Positions 1-62,355 of a DNA stretch of 64,000 nucleotides are shown here, piece by piece. Where the stretch lies: NCBI RefSeq assembly GCF_017356035.1, contig NZ_JAFIQX010000002.1, forward strand, positions 434,001-498,000, written 5' to 3'. The DNA is from Longitalea luteola. Lineage in GTDB: Bacteria > Bacteroidota > Bacteroidia > Chitinophagales > Chitinophagaceae. Under the pieces are notes generated by a model. The model worked only from the letters and a program-made list of their open reading frames with translations, was not told the origin of the DNA and ran no database searches. The position numbers and the translations under genes were made by a program. Every line of letters starts with the position of its first letter. The stretch's first letter is position 1.

Positions 1-54
1 TGTTTAGTGTTCTGATAACGGTTATCCTCAGCATCATTCGCCGGTTCTTTTAAA

Positions 55-860
55 GAAATTTCAAATCACAAATCGCAAAGACCCAAGGGAAAATCACAAA
101 TCACAAGACCCAAGGGAAAATCACAAATCACAAGACCCAGGGGAAAATCCCAAATCACAAATCACAAGACTCAAAGAAATCTCAAATCACAAATCGCAAG
201 AGCCAAAGAAATCACAAATCACAAATGGCAGGACTCAAAGAAATCACAAAATCACAAGACCCAGGGGAAAATCCCAAATCACAAATCACAAGACTCAAAG
301 AAATCACAAAATCACAAGACCCAGGGGAAAATCCCAAATCACAAATCGTAAGAGCCAAAGAAATCACAAAATTAAATTTGTTTGTGGTTTGGCCGCTTTT
401 CGGTTCCGGAATTGGGCTTTTGGGAATTTGGCTTTTGGATTTTTGGAGCTTTTTTGGTTCTTGTAAATTGGTTCTTGCAATTTGGTTCCTGGGATTTTGC
501 TTTGGAAATTGGGCTTTTGGCATTTGGAGCTTTTTTGGTTCTTGCAATTTGGTTCCTGGAATTTGGCTTTAGGAATTGGGCTTTTGGCTTTTGGAGCTTT
601 TTTGGTTCTTGTAATTTGGTTCTTGTAATTTGGTCCCTGGAATTGGGCTTTTGGCTTTTTGAGCTTTTTTGGTTCTTGCAAATTGGTTCTTGCAATTTGG
701 TCCCTGGGATTTGGTCCCTGGGATTTGGCTTTGGAAATTGGTCTTTTGGGTTTTGGAGCTTTTTTGGTTCTTGTAAATTGGTTCTTGCAATTTGGTCCCT
801 GGGATTTGGCTTTAGTGGTTCCTGAATTTCGGTTCCTGGGGGCTGTAACCTCGAATATAT
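55..860. repeat. Low-complexity inverted word-repeat cluster
   Basis: The stretch has two halves of opposite strand bias. From about 60 to 370 the plus strand is A/C-rich and built from words such as AAATCACAAATC, CAAGACCCAGGGGAAAATCC and CAAAGAAATC. A roughly 60-base block recurs in tandem near 246 and 306, and partly near 121. From about 370 to 835 it is G/T-rich, with words such as TTTTTTGGTTCTTG, CAATTTGGTTCCTGG and GGAGCTTTTTTGG. The reverse complement of the right half resembles the left half, so the region is an imperfect inverted repeat of about 800 bases. Overlapping frames stay open on both strands only because the words lack stop codons; their translations are repetitive Gln/Lys/Asn or Trp/Phe/Gly strings and are not credible proteins. 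The first 50 bases hold too little to assign to a gene. Confidence 0.9.
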
Positions 861-16658: not shown

Positions 16659-16915
16659 AAGGGCTAAACGCTCAACGCAAAACGCGGAACGCTCAACGCA
16701 AAACGCAGAACCGCAAAACGCAGCATCTGCCTGCCGGCAGGCAGGCGCTGAATGCCAAAGGCTGAAGGCTCAAAGCCAAAGGCTGAAGGCTCAAACCCAT
16801 AGATGTTTGCCGGGTTGGAGGTTGCGTTAAGCATTTGGCGTTCAACATTCCGGCGAGCTAGTCGGCGCATAGCGCCTAAACGAAGCAAGCGTTCAGCGTT
16901 TAGCATAAAAATTTT
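16659..16915. repeat. Inverted word-repeat cluster inside the efflux operon
   Basis: The left part repeats AACGCTCAACGCAAAACGC-like words. The middle has a perfect short palindrome CTGCCTGCCGGCAGGCAG and repeats of GGCTGAAGGCTCAAAGCC. The right part carries the inverse words (GCGTTCAGCGTTTAGC). The whole gap can fold on itself. GGCTGAAGGC reappears inverted (GCCTTCAGCC) at 37560-37680. Confidence 0.8.
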
Positions 16916-19953: not shown

Positions 19954-19983
19954 CGGAGGTACTAGTCATGGCTAAAAAGCAGC

Positions 19984-21243
19984 TTACTGTTTTATGAGTT
20001 GTGTGGTTCCAATTTTTTTGCCTGTTGCGTCTTCTACGGTTATAATATAAGTACCGGAGGGCAGCGCCTGTATGCCAGGTACAGGAATATTATTTGAGCC
20101 TGCAATCAGCGGCCGCTGGAGATGCTGCAGCTGCAAACCGAACTGGTTGTATAGTTTTATATGTGCAGCCAGTTTGTTTTCACTGTTGATGGTAATGGTA
20201 GCTGTGTTGGCAGCAGGATTTGGATATGCCCTGATGGTTGATTTTTCGTTTGCGGTGCTTCTGATGCGGATGGTTTGCGAATAGGAATAATTGCCAGACA
20301 TATCCACTTGTTTCAGGCGGTAATAATTTACTGAAAATGCGTTGTCGTCAACAGCATTGTATTCCCTGGTGCTGTTGCTGTTGCCAGCAGCCTGCACGGT
20401 AGTAAGAGTTAACCAGTCGATCCCATTCACGCTTTTTTCTACAACAAATTGCCCGAGGTTCTCTTCCTGCGCTGTTGACCAGTTAAGCTTTACTGTATTA
20501 TTGTTAAGGGAGCCATTAAATGAAGTTAAGGTAAGTGGTAGAACGATGGCGGGTTGAAAACTAATATTACCCAGGACAATGTATTGAGCCGTGGGGTTAG
20601 ATATGGAAGCACTGTTGTTCCGGTAACGGATTCTTACCTGGTTCAACAGGGTATTGCCAAAATCAACTACCACTGTTCCATTTTGATCCGCTGCATTGGA
20701 AGCGCTGTTTCCGCCTCCCTGCAAAAGCGTGGCTGCATAGGCCCTGTTACCTGAGATCCTGACAATATCGGAGCTGGCTACCAGCTTTGTAATAGTTGGG
20801 TTGACGGTAGTATTGGTACTACTGGTGCCCGTTACAACGATCTCATCAACATTTAGATGAAAAACCAACCAGTCCATATCAATATCCGCCACATTAAACC
20901 GAACATTTGTTACCGGTGCATTGAAAGCAATGGTTATATCTGCATAGTCTGATTCGCTGTCCCAGTCAACACCCACAAACAGATTATCAGCATTGGAGCC
21001 CAATGCACTTACATATTCGTTGCTTACTTTGGGCGAGGAATAGGCATAAGAGCCTGCACGGCTGTTACTGATATTAATCTGCGCATTAACCAGTGAGCTT
21101 CCAATGTTATTGGCGGTACCAGTGGTTCCTCCGTTAAGCCAACCTGTTAAGAGGCTGGTTGCCCAGTCCAGTACGACGGATTGAGCTACCGTTTGTTGCA
21201 TACTTAGCACCAGACAAGTGCATAAGATGTAGAAGGTTTTCAT
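19984..21243 (-). CDS. Secreted protein with T9SS type A sorting domain
   Basis: A 419-residue secreted protein. A signal peptide (residues 1-20, LCTCLVLSMQQTVAQ) is followed by a Ser/Asn/Thr-rich beta domain of about 220 residues that I do not recognise. Next is a fibronectin-like module starting LPLTLTSFNGSLNNNTVKL with YYRLKQVDMSGNYSYSQ, and a C-terminal type A sorting domain of about 75 residues (AYPNPAANTATITI, then LPSGTYIITVE and a final TTQLIKQ). The sorting domain directs export through the type IX secretion system and attachment to the cell surface or release. Function of the N-terminal domain unknown. Transcribed alone. Confidence 0.9.
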   Translation of the reverse strand: MKTFYILCTCLVLSMQQTVAQSVVLDWATSLLTGWLNGGTTGTANNIGSSLVNAQINISNSRAGSYAYSSPKVSNEYVSALGSNADNLFVGVDWDSESDYADITIAFNAPVTNVRFNVADIDMDWLVFHLNVDEIVVTGTSSTNTTVNPTITKLVASSDIVRISGNRAYAATLLQGGGNSASNAADQNGTVVVDFGNTLLNQVRIRYRNNSASISNPTAQYIVLGNISFQPAIVLPLTLTSFNGSLNNNTVKLNWSTAQEENLGQFVVEKSVNGIDWLTLTTVQAAGNSNSTREYNAVDDNAFSVNYYRLKQVDMSGNYSYSQTIRIRSTANEKSTIRAYPNPAANTATITINSENKLAAHIKLYNQFGLQLQHLQRPLIAGSNNIPVPGIQALPSGTYIITVEDATGKKIGTTQLIKQ

Positions 21244-21403
21244 ATTTCGGATTTTTGCACAGCCAAATGGTCACAATTAAGTTGCCAACTAAGTGCAAGT
21301 ATGTAATAAGCTCTATAACAATAGTATTACTTATAAAGAAAAATGTAGTTGTATGGTAAGTATGTCCCGGTATGGGAAAGAATTGTCCATGGAAGGGAAA
21401 TAA

Positions 21404-21446
21404 AAAAAACCAAAATGATACATCACTGTATCGTTTTGGTTTTTTC
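21404..21446 (-). terminator. Terminator of lysS
   Basis: AAAACCAAAATGATACA and TGTATCGTTTTGGTTTT form a long stem with one wobble. On the minus strand it ends in eight T. It lies 29 bases beyond the lysS stop, and T runs on both sides make it potentially bidirectional. Confidence 0.85.
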
Positions 21447-21474
21447 AAATACTTATTATAAGAGAAATGAGTGT

Positions 21475-40284: not shown

Positions 40285-40480
40285 AAACAATTTCTGATTT
40301 CGAGATTGCGGGATTTTGAGATTTGCTCAGGTTTGAGCTTCCCGATAAACATCAACATTTCGGAGATTTTGAGATTTCGGGATTGCAGGATGTTAAGATT
40401 TGCCGGGATTTGAACCCTCCGAATCGCGAAATCGGGAAATCCAAATATCAGAAATCCAGAAATCAGAAATCCCGAATTTT
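40285..40480. repeat. Inverted word-repeat cluster
   Basis: The left side repeats GATTTCGAGATTGCGGGATTT-like words and the right side the inverse (CGGGAAATCCAAATATCAGAAATC). The basic word, GAAATCnnGAAATC, is the same as in the clusters at 49974-50280 and 52420-52832, but the 36-base hairpin core found there is absent. Confidence 0.8.
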
Positions 40481-48521: not shown

Positions 48522-49826
48522 TTATATCCGTTTTATATCTGCGCCCAGCTGTTGCAGGCGTTTATCAATATACTGGTAACCGCGGTCTATCTGCTCAATA
48601 TTCTGGATCACGCTTTTACCATCGGCGCTCAGGGCTGCGATCAGCAGCGATACACCGGCCCTGATATCGGGGCTGCTCATCTGTATTCCCCGCAGTTTTT
48701 GCTCGCGGCCGAGGCCAATTACAGCGGCGCGATGGGGGTCGCACAAAATGATCTGCGCACCCATATCAAGCAGCTTATCTACAAAGAACAAACGGCTTTC
48801 GAACATCTTTTGATGGATGAGCACACTGCCACGCGCCTGGGTAGCTACTACCAGCACAATACTCAGCAGGTCGGGGGTAAAACCCGGCCAGGGGTGATCG
48901 TAAATAGTGAGCACCGAGCCATCGAGGAAAGTCTGAATTTCGTATACTTCCTGCGCCGGCACATGAATATCGTCGCCTTCAAATTGTAACTGAATGCCCA
49001 ACTGCCTGAATTTATCGGGAATAATGCCCAGGTGTTCAATGCCGGCATTTTTAATGGTGATGTCGCTTTGCGTCATGGCGGCCAGTCCGATAAAAGAACC
49101 GATCTCTATCATATCAGGTAACATCCGGTGTTCGGTGCCCTGTAAAGCGGGTACGCCTTCAATCGTGAGCAGGTTGCTGCCAATACCGCTGATCCTGGCG
49201 CCCATGCGGTTGAGCATTTTGCACAACTGCTGGATATACGGTTCGCAGGCGGCGTTATAAATGGTGGTAACACCTTCGGCCATAACCGCTGCCATAACGA
49301 TGTTGGCGGTTCCGGTAACGGAAGGTTCATCGAGCATGAGGTAAGTGCCTTTCAGGTTGGGAGCCTGAAGTTCAAAAAAGCCATCTTCGGGCAGGTAGTT
49401 AAAGGAGGCGCCCAGTTTTTCGAACCCTATGATATGGGTATCGAGCCGGCGGCGGCCAATTTTATCGCCACCGGGTTTGGGAATATAGGCTTTTCTGAAC
49501 CGGGCCAGCATGGGGCCGGCCAGCATAACGGAGCCCCGCAGGCGACCGCTTTTTTGTTTATAGGCGTCACTGCGCAGGTAATCTACATTTACATCATCGG
49601 CCTGAAAGATGCAGGTATCGCGTTGCGGGCGTTCGATCTTTACATTCATTTCGCCCAGCAGTTCAATGAGCAGGTTTACATCTAAAATGTCGGGAATATT
49701 GGTGATGGTGATCTTCTGGGGCGTAAGTAATACGGCACTGATGATCTGCAATGCTTCGTTCTTGGCGCCCTGCGGAACTATTTCACCTTTTAATTTTTTA
49801 CCGCCGATGACTTCAAAGGAATTCAT
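48522..49826 (-). CDS. murA: UDP-N-acetylglucosamine 1-carboxyvinyltransferase, Cys-to-Asp variant
   Basis: A 434-residue EPSP-synthase-fold enzyme that adds enolpyruvate to UDP-GlcNAc, the first committed step of peptidoglycan synthesis. GAKNEAL at residues 21-27 holds the conserved Lys22. The catalytic loop reads PKPGGDKIGRRRLD, so the usual cysteine (E. coli Cys115) is Asp121. In other bacteria this replacement keeps activity but blocks alkylation by fosfomycin. The rest is canonical (DMIEIGSFIGLAAMTQSDI, TIYDHPWPGFTPDLLS). A -7 box at 49881-49888 starts the murA-gmk transcript. Confidence 0.95.
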   Translation of the reverse strand: MNSFEVIGGKKLKGEIVPQGAKNEALQIISAVLLTPQKITITNIPDILDVNLLIELLGEMNVKIERPQRDTCIFQADDVNVDYLRSDAYKQKSGRLRGSVMLAGPMLARFRKAYIPKPGGDKIGRRRLDTHIIGFEKLGASFNYLPEDGFFELQAPNLKGTYLMLDEPSVTGTANIVMAAVMAEGVTTIYNAACEPYIQQLCKMLNRMGARISGIGSNLLTIEGVPALQGTEHRMLPDMIEIGSFIGLAAMTQSDITIKNAGIEHLGIIPDKFRQLGIQLQFEGDDIHVPAQEVYEIQTFLDGSVLTIYDHPWPGFTPDLLSIVLVVATQARGSVLIHQKMFESRLFFVDKLLDMGAQIILCDPHRAAVIGLGREQKLRGIQMSSPDIRAGVSLLIAALSADGKSVIQNIEQIDRGYQYIDKRLQQLGADIKRI

Positions 49827-49880
49827 AGATACTTGTGCTGGTTTTTATGACCCTCGATGGGTAGCCCGTTATTTAAGGTG

Positions 49881-49888
49881 CAAATATA
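49881..49888 (-). promoter_or_regulatory. -7 box TATATTTG of murA
   Basis: A full TAnnTTTG match on the minus strand, 55 bases before the murA ATG. Confidence 0.5.
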
Positions 49889-49973
49889 AAACCCCGACAA
49901 TAGGTTTTACTGTCAGGGTTTTATTTATTCTTTATTCTTTTATCCTTAGGCCCGATCGCTGGGCTTTTGAAAT

Positions 49974-50280
49974 CAATTTCTGATTTCGGGATTTTGAGAT
50001 TTTCCTATGTGCAGCATGCACTAAAAATGTCAAGAAGCCCTCTCCGATATTCGATTTCTGATTTAGGGATTTCGGGATTTTGAGATTTTCCTATGTGCAG
50101 CATGCACTAAAAATGTCAAGAAGCCCTCTCCGATATTCGATTTCTGATTTCGGGATTTCGGGATTTTGAGATTTTCCTATGTGCGGCACGCACCAAAAAT
50201 CTCAAGAAGCCCTCTCCGATATTCGATTTCTGATTTCGGTATTTCAGATTTCCGACTTCAGGCCTCGGACCTCCGACTTC
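49974..50280 (-). repeat. Hairpin-bearing repeat array, left cluster (three copies)
   Basis: Three copies of an 86-base unit. Each holds a 36-base core at 49996-50031, 50082-50117 and 50168-50203 that, read on the minus strand, is built from GAGATTTT...GTGCR-TGC-YGCAC...AAAATCTC, preceded by AGAGGGCTTCTTGA and followed by GAAATCCCGAAATC words. The first two cores have GTGCA/TGCAC as inner stem, the third GTGCG/CGCAC. The opposite-orientation partner cluster is at 52420-52832. The array ends at the DUF4290 stop. Confidence 0.9.
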
Positions 50281-51005
50281 TATTTATAGCGCTTCTTAAA
50301 CTTGCCGCCGCGGTCGTTGCGATTATCGCGTCCGCCGCCGCCATCGCGGTTATCACGTCCGCCACGGCCCTGGAATTTCTGGCCGCGTTTATTCCGGTAA
50401 TCGCCATAGCCTCCGCGGTCACGCTCACGTTCGCGGCTCTCGTTGGGGCGATGCTGCCGCACATACGGTGTATTGGTGAAGGTGAGCTGGCCATCGGTAA
50501 TATTGGTCAGTTCGCCCTGGATGGCATCGTCGTGTACGGTTTCTTTATGCCAGTTATTGTAAGCCAGCTTCATATAATAGGCAATGGCATTGGCAAAACC
50601 CTGTCTTTTTTCGCTCACTTCTTCTTTCAGGGCTTTATTTATAACCAGCTCCAGGTTTTTACCCAGGTGCGAAAATTTGGGATAGCGCTTGGGATAGGGC
50701 AGTGGTCCAGGCCTTGATTTTAACGTTTCCCGGGTAGGAATGGGGTAGGGCGAATCCACCGCCAGTTTAAAATCAGAGATCAGGAACAGGTGATCCCACA
50801 GTTTATGTCTGAAATCTTCTACATTTTTTAAATGGGGGTTCAGAAAGCCCATCAGTTCAATCACAGCATAAGCATTGCGTTGGCGGGTTTCCTGATCTTC
50901 GATCGTCACCAGGTATTCAATCATTTTTTGAATATGCCTTCCATATTCACGCATTACCAGATGGTTTCTGGTAGTATTATATTCCATTTCTTTAGTACTA
51001 TTCAT
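50280..51005 (-). CDS. DUF4290 protein with RGG-rich tail
   Basis: A 241-residue protein. Residues about 1-180 form the helical DUF4290 domain (RNHLVMREYGRHIQKMIEYL, NAYAVIELMGFLNPHL, DHLFLISDFKLAVDSPYP), a Bacteroidota family of unknown function. From about residue 190 it becomes a low-complexity basic tail (RDRGGYGDYRNKRGQKFQG, then RGGRDN and GGGGRDN repeats ending KFKKRYK), a pattern associated with RNA binding. It lies upstream of murA-gmk on the same strand, but a repeat array separates them. A -7 box at 51025-51032 is close to its start. Confidence 0.88.
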   Translation of the reverse strand: MNSTKEMEYNTTRNHLVMREYGRHIQKMIEYLVTIEDQETRQRNAYAVIELMGFLNPHLKNVEDFRHKLWDHLFLISDFKLAVDSPYPIPTRETLKSRPGPLPYPKRYPKFSHLGKNLELVINKALKEEVSEKRQGFANAIAYYMKLAYNNWHKETVHDDAIQGELTNITDGQLTFTNTPYVRQHRPNESRERERDRGGYGDYRNKRGQKFQGRGGRDNRDGGGGRDNRNDRGGKFKKRYK

Positions 51006-51024
51006 TCTATAAATATAAAGTAAA

Positions 51025-51032
51025 CAAAAGTA
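51025..51032 (-). promoter_or_regulatory. -7 box TACTTTTG of the DUF4290 gene
   Basis: A full TAnnTTTG match on the minus strand, 20 bases before the ATG at 51005. Confidence 0.5.
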
Positions 51033-51044
51033 ACAAAGTAAGTT

Positions 51045-51078
51045 AACAAAAAGAAAAGGCCTTTGTTAAAGGCCTTAT
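51045..51078 (-). terminator. Minus-strand terminator upstream of DUF4290
   Basis: AAGGCCTTT and AAAGGCCTT form a perfect stem; on the minus strand it is followed by TTCTTTTTG. It lies just upstream of the DUF4290 promoter, so it must end some separate upstream transcript. Confidence 0.7.
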
Positions 51079-51196
51079 CTATAAAGGATTGGTTTTTCCA
51101 CAGGTTAATTATTTTGGCCATGCCTCCAACGGTGCAACAGGTTGGAAAGGCACGGATTGATAATAGAAGAAATAATTTATCCGGTCTAGGAGATAA
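51050..51196 (-). ncRNA. Candidate small RNA between gldC and DUF4290
   Basis: The minus strand has a near -7 box (TACATTTTG, one extra base) at 51203-51211. A 10-pair hairpin with a two-base bulge lies at 51121-51152 (TGCCT-CCAAC pairing with GTTGG-AA-AGGCA), and the terminator at 51045-51078 follows. Together they outline a transcript of about 150 bases. A 39-codon frame (start MAKIINLWKNQSF, preceded by GGAGG) runs through the terminator stem and is less likely to be the product. No known RNA family recognised. Confidence 0.3.
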
Positions 51197-51211
51197 GCCA
51201 CTCAAAATGTA

Positions 51212-51553
51212 ACGGTGAAGAGGTAACCACACAACTTCCTTCTGTGCTTTTCAGGCTGCAAATAAACCTTAATAGATAGATTAGCGTTGATCGAAAGTCA
51301 ATTCATGGATACAGGAAAACAAATAAGGTAAAGGTTTTTTAAAATTGGAAGATTTTGAAGCGATTTCACCAAATTATCAAATAAACTTGTATTTACCAAC
51401 GGGTTGGCCCTTTTTTTAGTCCGGGGAACTAATAAACACCTGTATTGTGAAAAACGTTTATATGATTTAACATTCGACGGCCCCAACCGGTTTAATTTTC
51501 AATTACCCGATGCTAACCACTATACAGGTACAAAAAACTATTAAAAATCGGTG
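51212..51553. other. Intergenic stretch
   Basis: A/T-rich divergent gap between the candidate small RNA and the gldC promoter. Apart from a weak CCAAC-GGG-TTGG stem followed by seven T near 51404-51420, I see nothing in it. Confidence 0.5.
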
Positions 51554-51561
51554 TACTTTTG
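51554..51561 (+). promoter_or_regulatory. -7 box TACTTTTG of gldC
   Basis: A full TAnnTTTG match 38 bases before the gldC ATG. Confidence 0.6.
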
Positions 51562-51598
51562 CGGTTCCAAAATATAAAAAACTGATAATCAAAATAAA

Positions 51599-51946
51599 AT
51601 GAGGCAATCTACTATAACTATTGAGGTAGCGCTGGACGAAAAAAATATTCCCAACCAAATATTATGGAAAGCTACCGACAGCACCGCCGACCAGGCCCAG
51701 AAGGCCAGGGCCATGATGCTGGCTTTTTGGGACGCCGCGGATAAATCGGCCCTGCGTATGGACCTGTGGACCAAGGACATGATGGTAGATGAAATGGCTG
51801 ACTTTTATTATCAAACCATGATGACCATGGCCGATAGCTTTAACCGGGCTACGCACCAGACAGAACTGGTGGATATGATGAAGAATTTTGCCAAGGATTT
51901 TTATAACCGTTTCCGTGACATTCAATTGAAGGAAAATAAATTATAA
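51599..51946 (+). CDS. gldC: Gliding motility protein GldC
   Basis: A 115-residue cytoplasmic protein matching GldC: 'STITIEVALDEKNIPNQILW', an AMMLAFWDAADKSALRMDLW core, and MVDEMADFYYQTMMTMADSF. GldC is associated with Bacteroidota gliding and the type IX secretion machinery, though its exact job is unclear. It is followed after 17 bases by a YqeY-like gene, a plausible two-gene operon. The presence of GldC, a T9SS cargo protein and a PorG-like protein supports a gliding or T9SS-competent host. Confidence 0.9.
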   Translation: MRQSTITIEVALDEKNIPNQILWKATDSTADQAQKARAMMLAFWDAADKSALRMDLWTKDMMVDEMADFYYQTMMTMADSFNRATHQTELVDMMKNFAKDFYNRFRDIQLKENKL

Positions 51947-51963
51947 TCCAAAATAGCCGCTGT

Positions 51964-52416
51964 ATGAGTTTAGAACAAAAGATCACGGCCGAGCTGAAAA
52001 CAGCCATGCTGGCCAAAGATGAAAAAGCGTTACGTAGTTTGCGTGCCATCAAAGCCGCTATCCTACTGGCCAAAACATCGGAAGGAGCAGCCGGCGAGAT
52101 CAAAGAAGAAGACGAGATTAAATTATTGCAAAAGCTGGTAAAACAGCGTAAGGATTCACTCGAGATCTACCAGCAGCAGAACCGCGCCGACCTGGCACAA
52201 AAAGAGCAGGAAGAAATTGAGGTGATCGAGAAATTTCTGCCCAAGCAGTTAAGCGGGGAAGAGTTGAAGGCGGTTATTGCCGGCATTATAACGCAAACCG
52301 GCGCCAGTTCACCCGCCGATATGGGTAAGGTAATGGGCGTAGCCACCAAACAACTGGCAGGCCAAGCCGATGGGAAGGCTATTAGCGCTGTAGTGAAAGA
52401 GTTGCTGGCTAAATAA
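51964..52416 (+). CDS. GatB/YqeY domain protein
   Basis: A 150-residue helical protein of the YqeY family (SLEQKITAELKTAMLAKDEK, LRAIKAAILLAKTSE, KQRKDSLEIYQQQNRADLAQ, LPKQLSGEELKAVI). It corresponds to the tRNA-binding tail domain of the GatB amidotransferase subunit but stands alone; its function is not established. Cotranscribed with gldC. The right-hand hairpin array begins three bases after its stop. Confidence 0.92.
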   Translation: MSLEQKITAELKTAMLAKDEKALRSLRAIKAAILLAKTSEGAAGEIKEEDEIKLLQKLVKQRKDSLEIYQQQNRADLAQKEQEEIEVIEKFLPKQLSGEELKAVIAGIITQTGASSPADMGKVMGVATKQLAGQADGKAISAVVKELLAK

Positions 52417-52419
52417 AAA

Positions 52420-52832
52420 TCAGAAATCGGAAGTCGGAGGTCTGAAGTCAGAAATCAGAGAGGGCTTCTTGAGATTTTTAGTGCGTGCCGCACATAGGAA
52501 AATCTCGAAATCCCGAAATCCCGAAATCTCGAAATCAGAAATCAGAAATCAGAAATCGGAAGTGGGAGGTCTGAAGTCTGAAATCCGAAGTAGGAGAGGG
52601 CGTCTTGATCTTTAGTGCATGCCGCACATAGGAAAGTCTCGAAATCCCGAATTCCCGAAATCCCGAAATCTCGAAATCAGAAATCAGAAGTCGGAGGTCT
52701 GAAGTCAGAAATGAGAGAGGGCTTCTTGAGATTTTTAGTGCGTGCCGCACATAGGAAAATCTCGAAATCTCTAAATCTCGAAATCCCGAAATCAGAAATC
52801 AGACCTCAGGCTTCAGGCTTCCGACCTCAGCA
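52420..52832 (+). repeat. Hairpin-bearing repeat array, right cluster (three copies)
   Basis: Three copies in the plus orientation with cores at 52471-52506, 52607-52640 and 52728-52763. Cores 1 and 3 are identical: GAGATTTT, inner stem GTGCG-TGC-CGCAC, then ATAGG and AAAATCTC. The second is degenerate (two bases shorter, GTGCA with CGCAC, AAAGTCTC). Each is preceded by GGTCTGAAGTCAGAAATC and AGAGGGCTTCTTGA, and followed by GAAATCCCGAAATC words. Inverted relative to 49974-50280. Confidence 0.9.
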
Positions 52833-52834
52833 TT

Positions 52835-53371
52835 ATGATCATAGATATATTAGTTCTAATATTTCTGGTTATGGCCGTTATCAAAGGATTACGGCGTGGA
52901 CTTATTGTTGCAGTATTCTCCATTTTTGCGTTTATTGCAGGCATAGCGGCTGCAATGAAATTATCGGTTGTTGTAGCAGATTATTTAAAAGATTCCGTTA
53001 ATATATCTGCGAAGTGGTTGCCATTCATTTCATTTGCAGTGGTTTTTATAGGCGTAGTGATATTGGTGCGATGGGCAGCCAGCTTACTGGAATCAACGGT
53101 TGAAATGGCTATGATGGGGTGGGCAAACAAAATAGGGGGGATTATTTTGTACACTATTTTGTATATGTTTACACTCAGTGTAGTCCTGTTCTTTGTACAA
53201 AAAGTTAAGCTGATCAGCGATGAGTCCCTTGCCAATTCGGTTACCTGGCCCTGGTTACAGCCCTTAGGCCCCTGGGTAATAGATGGCTTCGGCAAACTGA
53301 TCCCGGCTTTTAAGAATATGTTTACAGAGCTAAGCAATTTTTTTGACCGGTTAGCCACACCAAAGGGGTGA
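52835..53371 (+). CDS. CvpA family membrane protein
   Basis: A 178-residue protein with four membrane segments. The start (MIIDILVLIFLVMAVIKGLRRGLI) matches the CvpA motif, where a charged KGxRRG follows the first segment. In E. coli CvpA is needed for colicin V production and for resistance to bile-like stress; the role here is unknown. A short C-terminal amphipathic tail is present. It is preceded directly by the repeat array. Confidence 0.88.
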   Translation: MIIDILVLIFLVMAVIKGLRRGLIVAVFSIFAFIAGIAAAMKLSVVVADYLKDSVNISAKWLPFISFAVVFIGVVILVRWAASLLESTVEMAMMGWANKIGGIILYTILYMFTLSVVLFFVQKVKLISDESLANSVTWPWLQPLGPWVIDGFGKLIPAFKNMFTELSNFFDRLATPKG

Positions 53372-62184: not shown

Positions 62185-62355
62185 CAATAGACAATAGAAA
62201 AAGACAATAGACAAAAGGCAAAAAGGTAACGAGGCAAAAAGGCAGAAAGATCAGGAGGCGTAAGTGTGGGACATTAGCTTTAACGATCCGGTTATTGACT
62301 ATTCACCATTGACCATTGACTATGACGATTGGCCATTGACCATTCACGATAAAAC
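62185..62355. repeat. Inverted word-repeat cluster bamA-skp
   Basis: AATAGACAATAGAAAAAGAC on the left and words ATTGACCATTGACTAT and GGCCATTGACCATTC on the right (their inverses, GTCAATGGTCAAT, resemble the left words). The same vocabulary occurs near 43788 (CCATTGTCTATTGCC). A strong TTAGGAGGAATT ribosome-binding site for the next gene follows at about 62357. Confidence 0.75.

What the first reader, a model, noticed from the sequence alone, without database searches (positions are those of the whole stretch)
49996..52763. Two opposed three-copy hairpin arrays bracket DUF4290-gldC-yqeY, with a compensatory base-pair change
Six copies of a 34-36-base element occur in two clusters, three in minus and three in plus orientation, about 2.1 kb apart. 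Each can form an outer stem GAGATTTT/AAAATCTC and an inner stem of five pairs with a TGC loop. The inner stem is GTGCG/CGCAC in three copies and GTGCA/TGCAC in two, a paired change that keeps the stem. The sixth, degenerate, copy (52607-52640) mixes GTGCA with CGCAC, which is an intermediate that pairs only as a wobble on the opposite strand. Covariation implies that folding itself is under selection. The element is preceded by a fixed AGAGGGCTTCTTGA and embedded in GAAATC words. It could be a REP/MITE-like mobile hairpin or an RNA element; the inverted arrangement could also let the segment between flip.
Basis: partly seen in the sequence, partly recalled or inferred. Interest (0 to 1): 0.78.

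Follow-up and report, generated by a model that had tools for sequence, protein, structure and literature searches.

The report
Genus-wide palindromic repeat, locally multiplied
The six hairpins are local copies of a short, near-palindromic repeat that sits between genes at some eighty or more places in this bacterium and also occurs in its relatives; the reported sign that folding is selected does not hold up when more copies are compared.

Summary
The six copies are real and far beyond chance. The reported core is nearly private: 6 exact copies here and 1 diverged copy elsewhere in the 7.3-Mb genome; 195 other genomes give no match with fewer than 2 mismatches. But the copies belong to a larger family: about 90 nt, two inverted arms of 7/8-nt words (GATTT.. 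/ AAATC..) around a 21-22-nt core. Core length is conserved (73 of 92 innermost cores, tandem copies included, are 21, 22, 29 or 30 nt), core sequence diverged but related (11.4 bits versus 3.7 in shuffles). The own genome's 150 listed matches cluster into about 102 elements at 81 places. All 9 sampled congeners match; 20 of 186 other genomes do. Most arrays lie just after stop codons. Covariation vanishes family-wide: 0 of 13 arm pairs change on both sides, cores fold no better than shuffled, and 166 of 500 shuffles reach the six-copy score. RAYT origin and segment flipping are not supported. Best reading: an ERIC/MITE-like dispersed repeat, duplicated in tandem and ectopically here.

The parts
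49982..50245 (-). minus cluster: three tandem 86-bp units, each one element (word arm, 22-nt core, remnant of the other arm)
   Evidence: family-model matches 49975-50033 (28.7 bits), 50054-50119 (41.3), 50140-50205 (45.9)
50003..50024 (-). 22-nt core of copy 1 (GTGCA/TGCAC form)
   Evidence: read
50089..50110 (-). 22-nt core of copy 2 (GTGCA/TGCAC form)
   Evidence: read
50175..50196 (-). 22-nt core of copy 3 (GTGCG/CGCAC form)
   Evidence: read
52417..52830 (+). plus cluster: three elements with interposed GAAATC/GAAGTC words, starting directly after the yqeY stop codon
   Evidence: family-model matches 52469-52530 (30.5 bits) and 52726-52798 (40.3 bits)
52478..52499 (+). 22-nt core of copy 4 (GTGCG/CGCAC form)
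   Evidence: read
52612..52633 (+). 22-nt core of copy 5 (degenerate, GTGCA/CGCAC)
   Evidence: read
52735..52756 (+). 22-nt core of copy 6 (GTGCG/CGCAC form)
   Evidence: read
40290..40448 (+). two further family members in the window, the first well preserved (core like the family consensus)
   Evidence: 53.5 bits (40290-40360) and 35.7 bits (40368-40448); the L. arenae gap looks like a decayed counterpart and gives no model match
50280..51005 (-). DUF4290 protein gene whose 3' end the minus cluster follows
   Evidence: Pfam PF14123
51599..51946 (+). gldC
   Evidence: Pfam PF19937, NCBIfam TIGR03515
51964..52416 (+). yqeY, whose 3' end the plus cluster follows
   Evidence: Pfam PF09424

Best explanation
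The six hairpins are degenerate, locally multiplied members of a family of dispersed intergenic repeats shared by the genus to which this genome belongs (Niastella/Longitalea, family Chitinophagaceae). A complete element is about 90 nt: an arm of GATTT words every 7-8 nt, a 21-22-nt core, and a mirror arm of AAATC words. SHOWN: the architecture, the conserved core length, the related cores, the occurrence in all nine sampled congeners, the place just after stop codons in most cases, presence/absence between relatives, and the lack of covariation. INFERRED: elements arose by rare copying into intergenic DNA by an unidentified means, are largely inherited vertically, and their word arms grow and shrink by slippage or unequal recombination between words. 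Here one element behind DUF4290 (a gap also occupied in three congeners) was tripled in tandem (86-bp units) and a copy reached the gap behind yqeY in inverted orientation, probably by ectopic template switching or gene conversion through shared words. The paired change in the inner stem is most simply one template-switch (quasipalindrome-type) event shared by two near-identical tandem copies, not repeated selection for folding. If the element has a role it is more likely at gene 3' ends or as a DNA site than as a conserved RNA fold.
For: Arms and order: 49 GATTT-to-AAATC transitions against 5 of the reverse within 100 nt in 53 own-genome stretches. Core length: 49 of 62 own and 24 of 30 L. 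arenae innermost cores, tandem copies included, are 21, 22, 29 or 30 nt in a 10-35 scan; the window cores are 22. Related cores: 45 cores, 11.4 bits versus 3.7 +/- 0.15 in 30 shuffled sets (20 random starts for the real set, 6 for each shuffled one). Whole element: 40-member alignment. The sequence-only model finds the window copies, which were not in its training set, at up to 45.9, 41.3 and 40.3 bits (E 2e-13 to 1e-11). Copy number: 184 matches in the own genome over both strands; the 150 listed fall on about 102 elements at 81 places by a simple clustering of starts. Genus: own and 9 of 9 congeners match, 8 of these 10 at or above the 22 candidates scored; outside, 20 of 186 genomes match. 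Orthologous gaps: 15 of 28 fetched L. arenae loci share an occupied gap with a fetched own-genome locus. DUF4290 gap occupied in own, G002, G006, G007 and empty in G001, G003, G004, G005, G009; yqeY gap occupied only in own, of 10. Context: 24 of 29 tandem arrays begin within 25 nt of the preceding stop (my count); in tandem gaps 22 of 27 cores lie nearer the stop than the next start. Template switching can create paired changes (PMC8794818, abstract) and invert spacers between inverted repeats (PMC8604942, passages).
Against: The window core is only weakly like the family cores: p = 0.03 for one form, 0.22 and 0.92 for the two others, uncorrected; its membership rests on arms, core length and place. 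The model score of the window copies comes mostly from the word arms, which are common in this genome. The core pattern has 80 matches at 2-3 mismatches in the 195 other genomes against 40 for the reversed pattern (my count's table), so faint relatives of the core elsewhere are not excluded. No target-site duplication, autonomous partner or mobilising enzyme was found, so mobility is inferred from distribution only. Some elements share a gap with distant congeners (4 of 20 fetched congener loci), which could mean selection for keeping them rather than neutral inheritance. How the copy behind yqeY arose (transposition, conversion or template switch) was not tested directly.
Confidence: 0.75

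Rival explanations
1. A functional RNA or terminator-like hairpin at gene 3' ends, kept by selection for folding (mRNA stabiliser or bidirectional terminator, REP/BIME-like in role).
For: 24 of 29 tandem arrays begin within 25 nt of a stop, and convergent gaps outnumber divergent ones (14 against 3 of 45 cores; 15 against 7 of 57 arrays, where the window's minus cluster is counted as convergent because of a spurious ORF and is really tandem). Words of the two arms are complementary and nearly invariant. Some elements share a gap between distant congeners.
Against: 0 of 13 pairs with a two-sided change, covariation term +0.08; arms' spacers pair less than permuted arms; core MFE -1.89 versus -1.71 +/- 0.19 shuffled; 3 of the 6 window copies have a damaged outer stem. 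Avoidance of promoters alone could explain the position.
Confidence: 0.15
2. A DNA-binding platform: the GATTT/AAATC words at 7-8-nt spacing in two inverted blocks about 22 nt apart are sites of a multimeric protein, and sequence rather than pairing is conserved.
For: Words are near invariant while spacers drift without compensation; core length is kept while core sequence diverges; some gaps are occupied across the genus.
Against: Patchy presence at the DUF4290 gap (4 of 9 determinable genomes) and the yqeY gap (1 of 10); word number varies strongly; common descent also explains conserved words. No candidate protein was sought.
Confidence: 0.2
3. A RAYT-mobilised REP family.
For: Palindromic, intergenic, multicopy; one Y1_Tnp gene in the genome.
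Against: GTAG within 12 nt of an end in 1 of 40 and CGTC in 0 of 40 aligned members; the Y1_Tnp protein is nearer IS200 (54.8 bits, cut-off 55) than REP transposase (23.1 bits, cut-off 80); no element in the 4 kb fetched around it; Y1_Tnp is in 148 of 196 genomes while the element is in 30.
Confidence: 0.04
4. An invertible switch: the two opposed arrays let the DUF4290-gldC-yqeY segment flip.
For: Inverted repeats of 80-101 nt, 83-91% complementary, 2.2-2.6 kb apart.
Against: Same gene order and strands in the 8 of 9 congeners where all four genes could be placed; L. arenae is colinear across the aligned parts of the window. No recombinase was sought and no reads were available. Occasional homologous inversion is possible but nothing suggests a switch.
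Confidence: 0.03

Closest known systems
ERIC / enterobacterial RU-1 (127-bp intergenic repeat, MITE-like)
   Same: Size class, palindromic form, intergenic place, multicopy, limited host range
   Different: Different design: arms are arrays of 7/8-nt words with variable word number around a 21-22-nt diverged core; host is Chitinophagaceae. RU-1 was seen only in a search listing with the start of the abstract (PMC2759123) and ERIC in a passage of PMC3751351; other ERIC traits are recalled
BrickBuilt MITE of Porphyromonas gingivalis (PMC4596501, abstract read)
   Same: Bacteroidetes host; MITE that contains a short tandem repeat and has small inverted-repeat ends; intergenic; multicopy
   Different: BrickBuilt has a 23-nt minisatellite between leader and tail; here the repeated words form the two inverted arms and the centre is a fixed-length core
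GTAG/CGTC-tagged REPs (PMC3733652, passages read)
   Same: Short intergenic palindromes in high copy, able to form stem-loops
   Different: No GTAG or CGTC tag (1 and 0 of 40), no RAYT link, longer (about 90 against 20-40 nt), 21-22-nt centre (CGTC loops measure 4-5)
Intergenic heptamer repeats (TAACTGA in Beggiatoaceae, PMC4679880; search listing with start of abstract only)
   Same: 7-nt words repeated between genes
   Different: Here words form inverted blocks around a core and are spaced by 8 more often than by 7 nt

Membership tests
MITE / ERIC-like dispersed intergenic palindrome | multicopy, short, non-coding, near-palindromic, dispersed between genes | tested here: met
   about 102 elements at 81 places among 150 listed of 184 matches; 40-member alignment; intergenic by simple ORF calling in 51 of 57 arrays, 4 inside ORFs of 81-135 codons that are probably spurious, 2 at edges
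MITE / ERIC-like dispersed intergenic palindrome | presence/absence between relatives at orthologous sites | tested here: met
   DUF4290 gap 4 of 9 determinable genomes, yqeY gap 1 of 10; one further gap with a model match only in L. arenae
MITE | target-site duplication and ends shared with an autonomous transposon | tested here: inconclusive
   flanks of 20 congener elements looked at by eye, no consistent duplication noticed; no search for an autonomous partner was made
REP (GTAG or CGTC superfamily) | GTAG or CGTC tag at one end | tested here: not met
   1 of 40 and 0 of 40 within 12 nt of an end
REP mobilised by RAYT | RAYT gene flanked by the repeat | tested here: not met
   single Y1_Tnp, below the REP-transposase cut-off, no element within the fetched 4 kb
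Structured RNA family | covarying base pairs across independent copies | tested here: not met
   no Rfam family reaches its gathering score in 49800-53000
Structured RNA family | expression as a defined transcript | not testable with these tools
   no RNA-seq on hand
Invertible switch | both orientations found | tested here: not met
   one orientation in the 8 congeners where it could be judged; populations could not be examined

The most novel reading that the evidence does not exclude
A genus-wide 3'-end element in which two word-built inverted arms are conserved while the 21-22-nt centre keeps its length but diversifies and at times flips, through repeated template switching between the arms; the arms serve a DNA-binding protein and the centre is free to drift. 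This would be a self-maintaining 'conserved frame, evolving core' site, kept by selection at some genes for the age of the genus.
Probability: 0.17. Interest if true: 0.62.

Novelty: new member of a known kind. Interest (0 to 1): 0.4.

Why it matters
It turns an isolated curiosity into a countable family (about 102 elements listed for this genome, and matches in all nine sampled congeners) with two testable properties: a core whose length is fixed while its sequence drifts, and arms made of words that are most numerous in one lineage (GAAATC word pairs: own 248 and L. arenae 177, reversed-pattern controls 16 and 0, against 2-42 in the eight other congeners). It also gives a warning: a paired base change seen in near-identical tandem copies is one event and not evidence of selected folding. 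No description of this family was found in the held library, which misses most subscription papers.

Tried and rejected
RAYT/REP origin: rejected. Known RNA family: rejected (one sub-threshold BTnc005 hit, 22.7 against a gathering score of 174.8). Viral source of the core: 0 exact matches in viral contigs. Selection on folding: rejected at family level. An apparent avoidance of pairing between arms (68 of 140 spacer positions paired against 82.9 expected) is best explained by the two arms differing by descent, visible once elements are oriented by their core; this was judged from the oriented listing, not by a further test. A rule that the core points along the upstream gene: rejected, 15 same and 12 opposite. 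The private core in relatives: (196 genomes, up to 3 mismatches) has 80 matches in 62 other genomes, none with fewer than 2 mismatches, against 40 for the reversed pattern (my counts). RNAalifold on core plus one word (65 sequences) gave no structure (one search had fed T instead of U; one search repeated it with U, same result).

Limits and dropped rows: one search scored 22 candidates per genome, so counts at or near 22 are lower bounds; one search scored 150 of 2669 candidates and listed 150 of 184 matches; one search merges starts within 40 nt, and at least three of the listed matches cover one arm only. Searches used 52 own-genome loci plus the window, chosen because they carry GAAATC words, so they are not a random sample. 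A2 used 40 of the 43 cores scoring at least 9, out of 65 collected; the three left out by me were L034, the first L177 core and L218. EM used one core per locus unless clearly different; the mirror test used one element per locus (43), that used 59. Of 16 own/L. arenae flank matches I count 15, because in L192/L222 the arrays lie in different gaps; L161/L227 is a match between arrays only. The tree has weak inner support (28, 52, 57).
Full report
What is there. The window holds six copies of the reported core, three on the minus strand at 50001, 50087 and 50173 and three on the plus strand at 52481, 52615 and 52738; none of 100 shuffles gave six. The minus copies are an 86-bp tandem repeat. 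The flanking genes are a DUF4290 protein, gldC, yqeY and a gene of the Colicin V production (CvpA-like) family, with an EPSP-synthase-family gene on the left that I call murA from recall.

The core is nearly private, the architecture is not. In the 7.3-Mb genome the core pattern has six exact matches and one with three mismatches on contig C5 (84% over 44 nt). In 195 other genomes there are 80 matches, all with two or three mismatches, against 40 for the reversed pattern (my counts). The flanking words, however, hit dozens of other places. Reading 52 own-genome stretches plus the window, picked for carrying such words, showed the same plan repeatedly: a block of GATTT words, a core, a block of AAATC words. 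Of adjacent opposite blocks within 100 nt, 49 run GATTT to AAATC and 5 the other way. A first count of core lengths peaked at 21-22 (15 of 49), with further peaks at 29-30 (9) and 37-38 (5), that is, plus one or two decayed words. A more tolerant scan of lengths 10-35 in own and L. arenae loci put 73 of 92 innermost cores at 21, 22, 29 or 30 (49 of 62 and 24 of 30; tandem copies counted). The window cores are 22.

The cores are related. Aligning 45 cores of 21-23 nt with free choice of orientation gave 11.4 bits of information against 3.7 +/- 0.15 (maximum 3.92) for 30 sets of shuffled cores (the real set had 20 random starts, the shuffled sets 6). With 20 more cores from three other congeners the consensus is about CTTTAAGTTTCAACCTTCTGAC. 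Oriented by the core, the whole element is asymmetric and about 90 nt: AATTTCTGATTTTGAGATTTnGAGATTTTGAGATTT, core, AAATCTCAAAATCCCnAAATCTCnAAATC. The window core itself is only weakly similar to family cores (p = 0.03 for the copy-1 form, 0.92 and 0.22 for the two others, uncorrected).

Distribution. A sequence-only model of 40 elements, none from the target arrays, finds the window copies at up to 45.9 bits and a better member at 40290-40360 with 53.5 bits. In the own genome it gives 184 matches, counting both strands; the 150 listed form about 102 elements at 81 places. Of 196 genomes, own and all nine congeners match (8 of these 10 with 22 or more, 22 being the number of candidates scored; G008, 61% complete, 4; G009, 2); 20 of the other 186 have matches, 1-4 each except G038 with 20 and G072 with 9, best E-value 4.4e-11. 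The stricter pattern GAGATTTN{20,23}AAATCTC gives 14 in own, then 13, 15, 8, 1, 3, 13, 7, 0 and 0 in G001 to G009, and 0 or 1 in the other genomes except G034 with 3; reversed-pattern controls are 0-2. GAAATC word pairs are most numerous in own and G007 (248 and 177, controls 16 and 0) against 2-42 in the other congeners (in G005 the control, 14, exceeds the count, 4).

Place. By simple ORF calling, 57 arrays lie in 29 tandem, 15 convergent and 7 divergent gaps, 4 inside short ORFs that are probably spurious, and 2 at edges; the window's minus cluster is counted as convergent there because of a spurious ORF and is really tandem (DUF4290 to murA). Of the 29 tandem arrays 24 begin within 25 nt of the preceding stop (my count). 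In a partly different set, tandem cores are nearer the preceding stop than the following start in 22 of 27, and 14 cores are in convergent, 3 in divergent gaps. Convergent gaps should equal divergent ones in number on a circular chromosome (general knowledge), so there is an excess at 3' ends, but avoidance of promoters could suffice.

History of this locus. L. arenae is colinear over most of the window at 82-91% identity by aligned block. In the gap behind DUF4290 a single element with a 22-nt core is present in L. arenae, G006 and G002; the own genome has three; G001, G003, G004, G005 and G009 have none, and G008 could not be judged. The core in G002 is turned round relative to G006 and L. 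arenae, by a modest margin (75.5 against 70.0 bits for G002), although G002 and G006 are sisters (98% support); this is either a second insertion or a flip. The gap behind yqeY has an element only in the own genome, of ten. One gap near 44.8 kb has a model match only in L. arenae. So elements come and go, yet 15 of 28 fetched L. arenae loci share an occupied gap with a fetched own-genome locus, and 4 of 20 fetched congener loci do so too.

Folding. RNAalifold on 40 elements predicts 13 pairs, all within the words; none has a change on both sides and the covariation term is +0.08. Cores fold no better than shuffled ones (-1.89 against -1.71 +/- 0.19 kcal/mol). Spacers of the two arms match less often than in permuted arms (7.7% against 14.1%; 9.7% against 14.6%; 68 of 140 positions against 82.9), which I ascribe to the asymmetry of the arms seen once elements are oriented. 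On the window copies with the C5 copy (5 distinct rows), one pair shows a two-sided change, and 166 of 500 shuffles reach the observed covariation score. The C5 copy, and three of the six window copies, have damaged stems. In the literature a single template-switch event can produce a paired change (PMC8794818, abstract read), and template switching between inverted repeats is reported to homogenise arms and invert the spacer (PMC8604942, passages read; yeast).

What it is. The best-supported reading is a dispersed, largely vertically inherited, ERIC/MITE-like intergenic repeat, not found described in the library searched, that has been multiplied locally. The arrays are opposed because the genes they follow are divergent; both clusters have the same sense after their gene, though no such rule holds for the family (15 same, 12 opposite). 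How elements spread is not known: no RAYT link, no consistent target duplication noticed by eye, and no search for an autonomous partner was made. A role at gene 3' ends or as a protein-binding site remains open.

Literature. Searches for heptamer or palindromic intergenic repeats with Chitinophaga, Niastella or Bacteroidetes gave no description of this family. PMC3751351 mentions N. koreensis only as a genome-size standard in the passages read. BrickBuilt of P. gingivalis (PMC4596501, abstract) is the nearest analogue in the phylum that I found.

Noticed in passing
window 16727-16744; also L174, L034, L183 (own genome), with near copies in L177, L016, L028: A palindrome CCTGCCTGCCGGCAGGCAGG or a near copy recurs, several times inside the core or arm of the repeat elements.
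   Followed up: no
window 1-815: Two large word arrays of other dialects (AAATCAC/AAGACCC words, then TTTGGTTCTTGCAA words) fill one stretch.
   Followed up: no
window 62185-62344 and L158 (C39, before the Y1_Tnp gene): ATTGACC-type 7-nt words occur here and, in inverted blocks, just before the one Y1_Tnp gene found, which sits between a DAHP-synthase-like and an aroB-like gene (names by inspection).
   Followed up: partly
window 19980-21469: About 1.4 kb more here than in L. arenae; it holds a minus-strand frame of 428 codons between stops that seems to start with a signal peptide (by eye).
   Followed up: no
window 49893-49926: A GC-rich hairpin (CCCCGACA...TGTCGGGG) with T runs on both sides, between the minus cluster and murA, seen with small changes in own and in the eight congener gaps printed.
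   Followed up: no
L267 (G002) versus L262 (G006), gap behind DUF4290: Sister genomes carry the element with the core apparently in opposite orientations at the same gap, a possible loop flip.
   Followed up: partly
L022 (C6), L190 (C33), L160 (C2), L227 (L. arenae C36): Other loci show the same local tandem multiplication of a locus-private core as the window clusters.
   Followed up: partly
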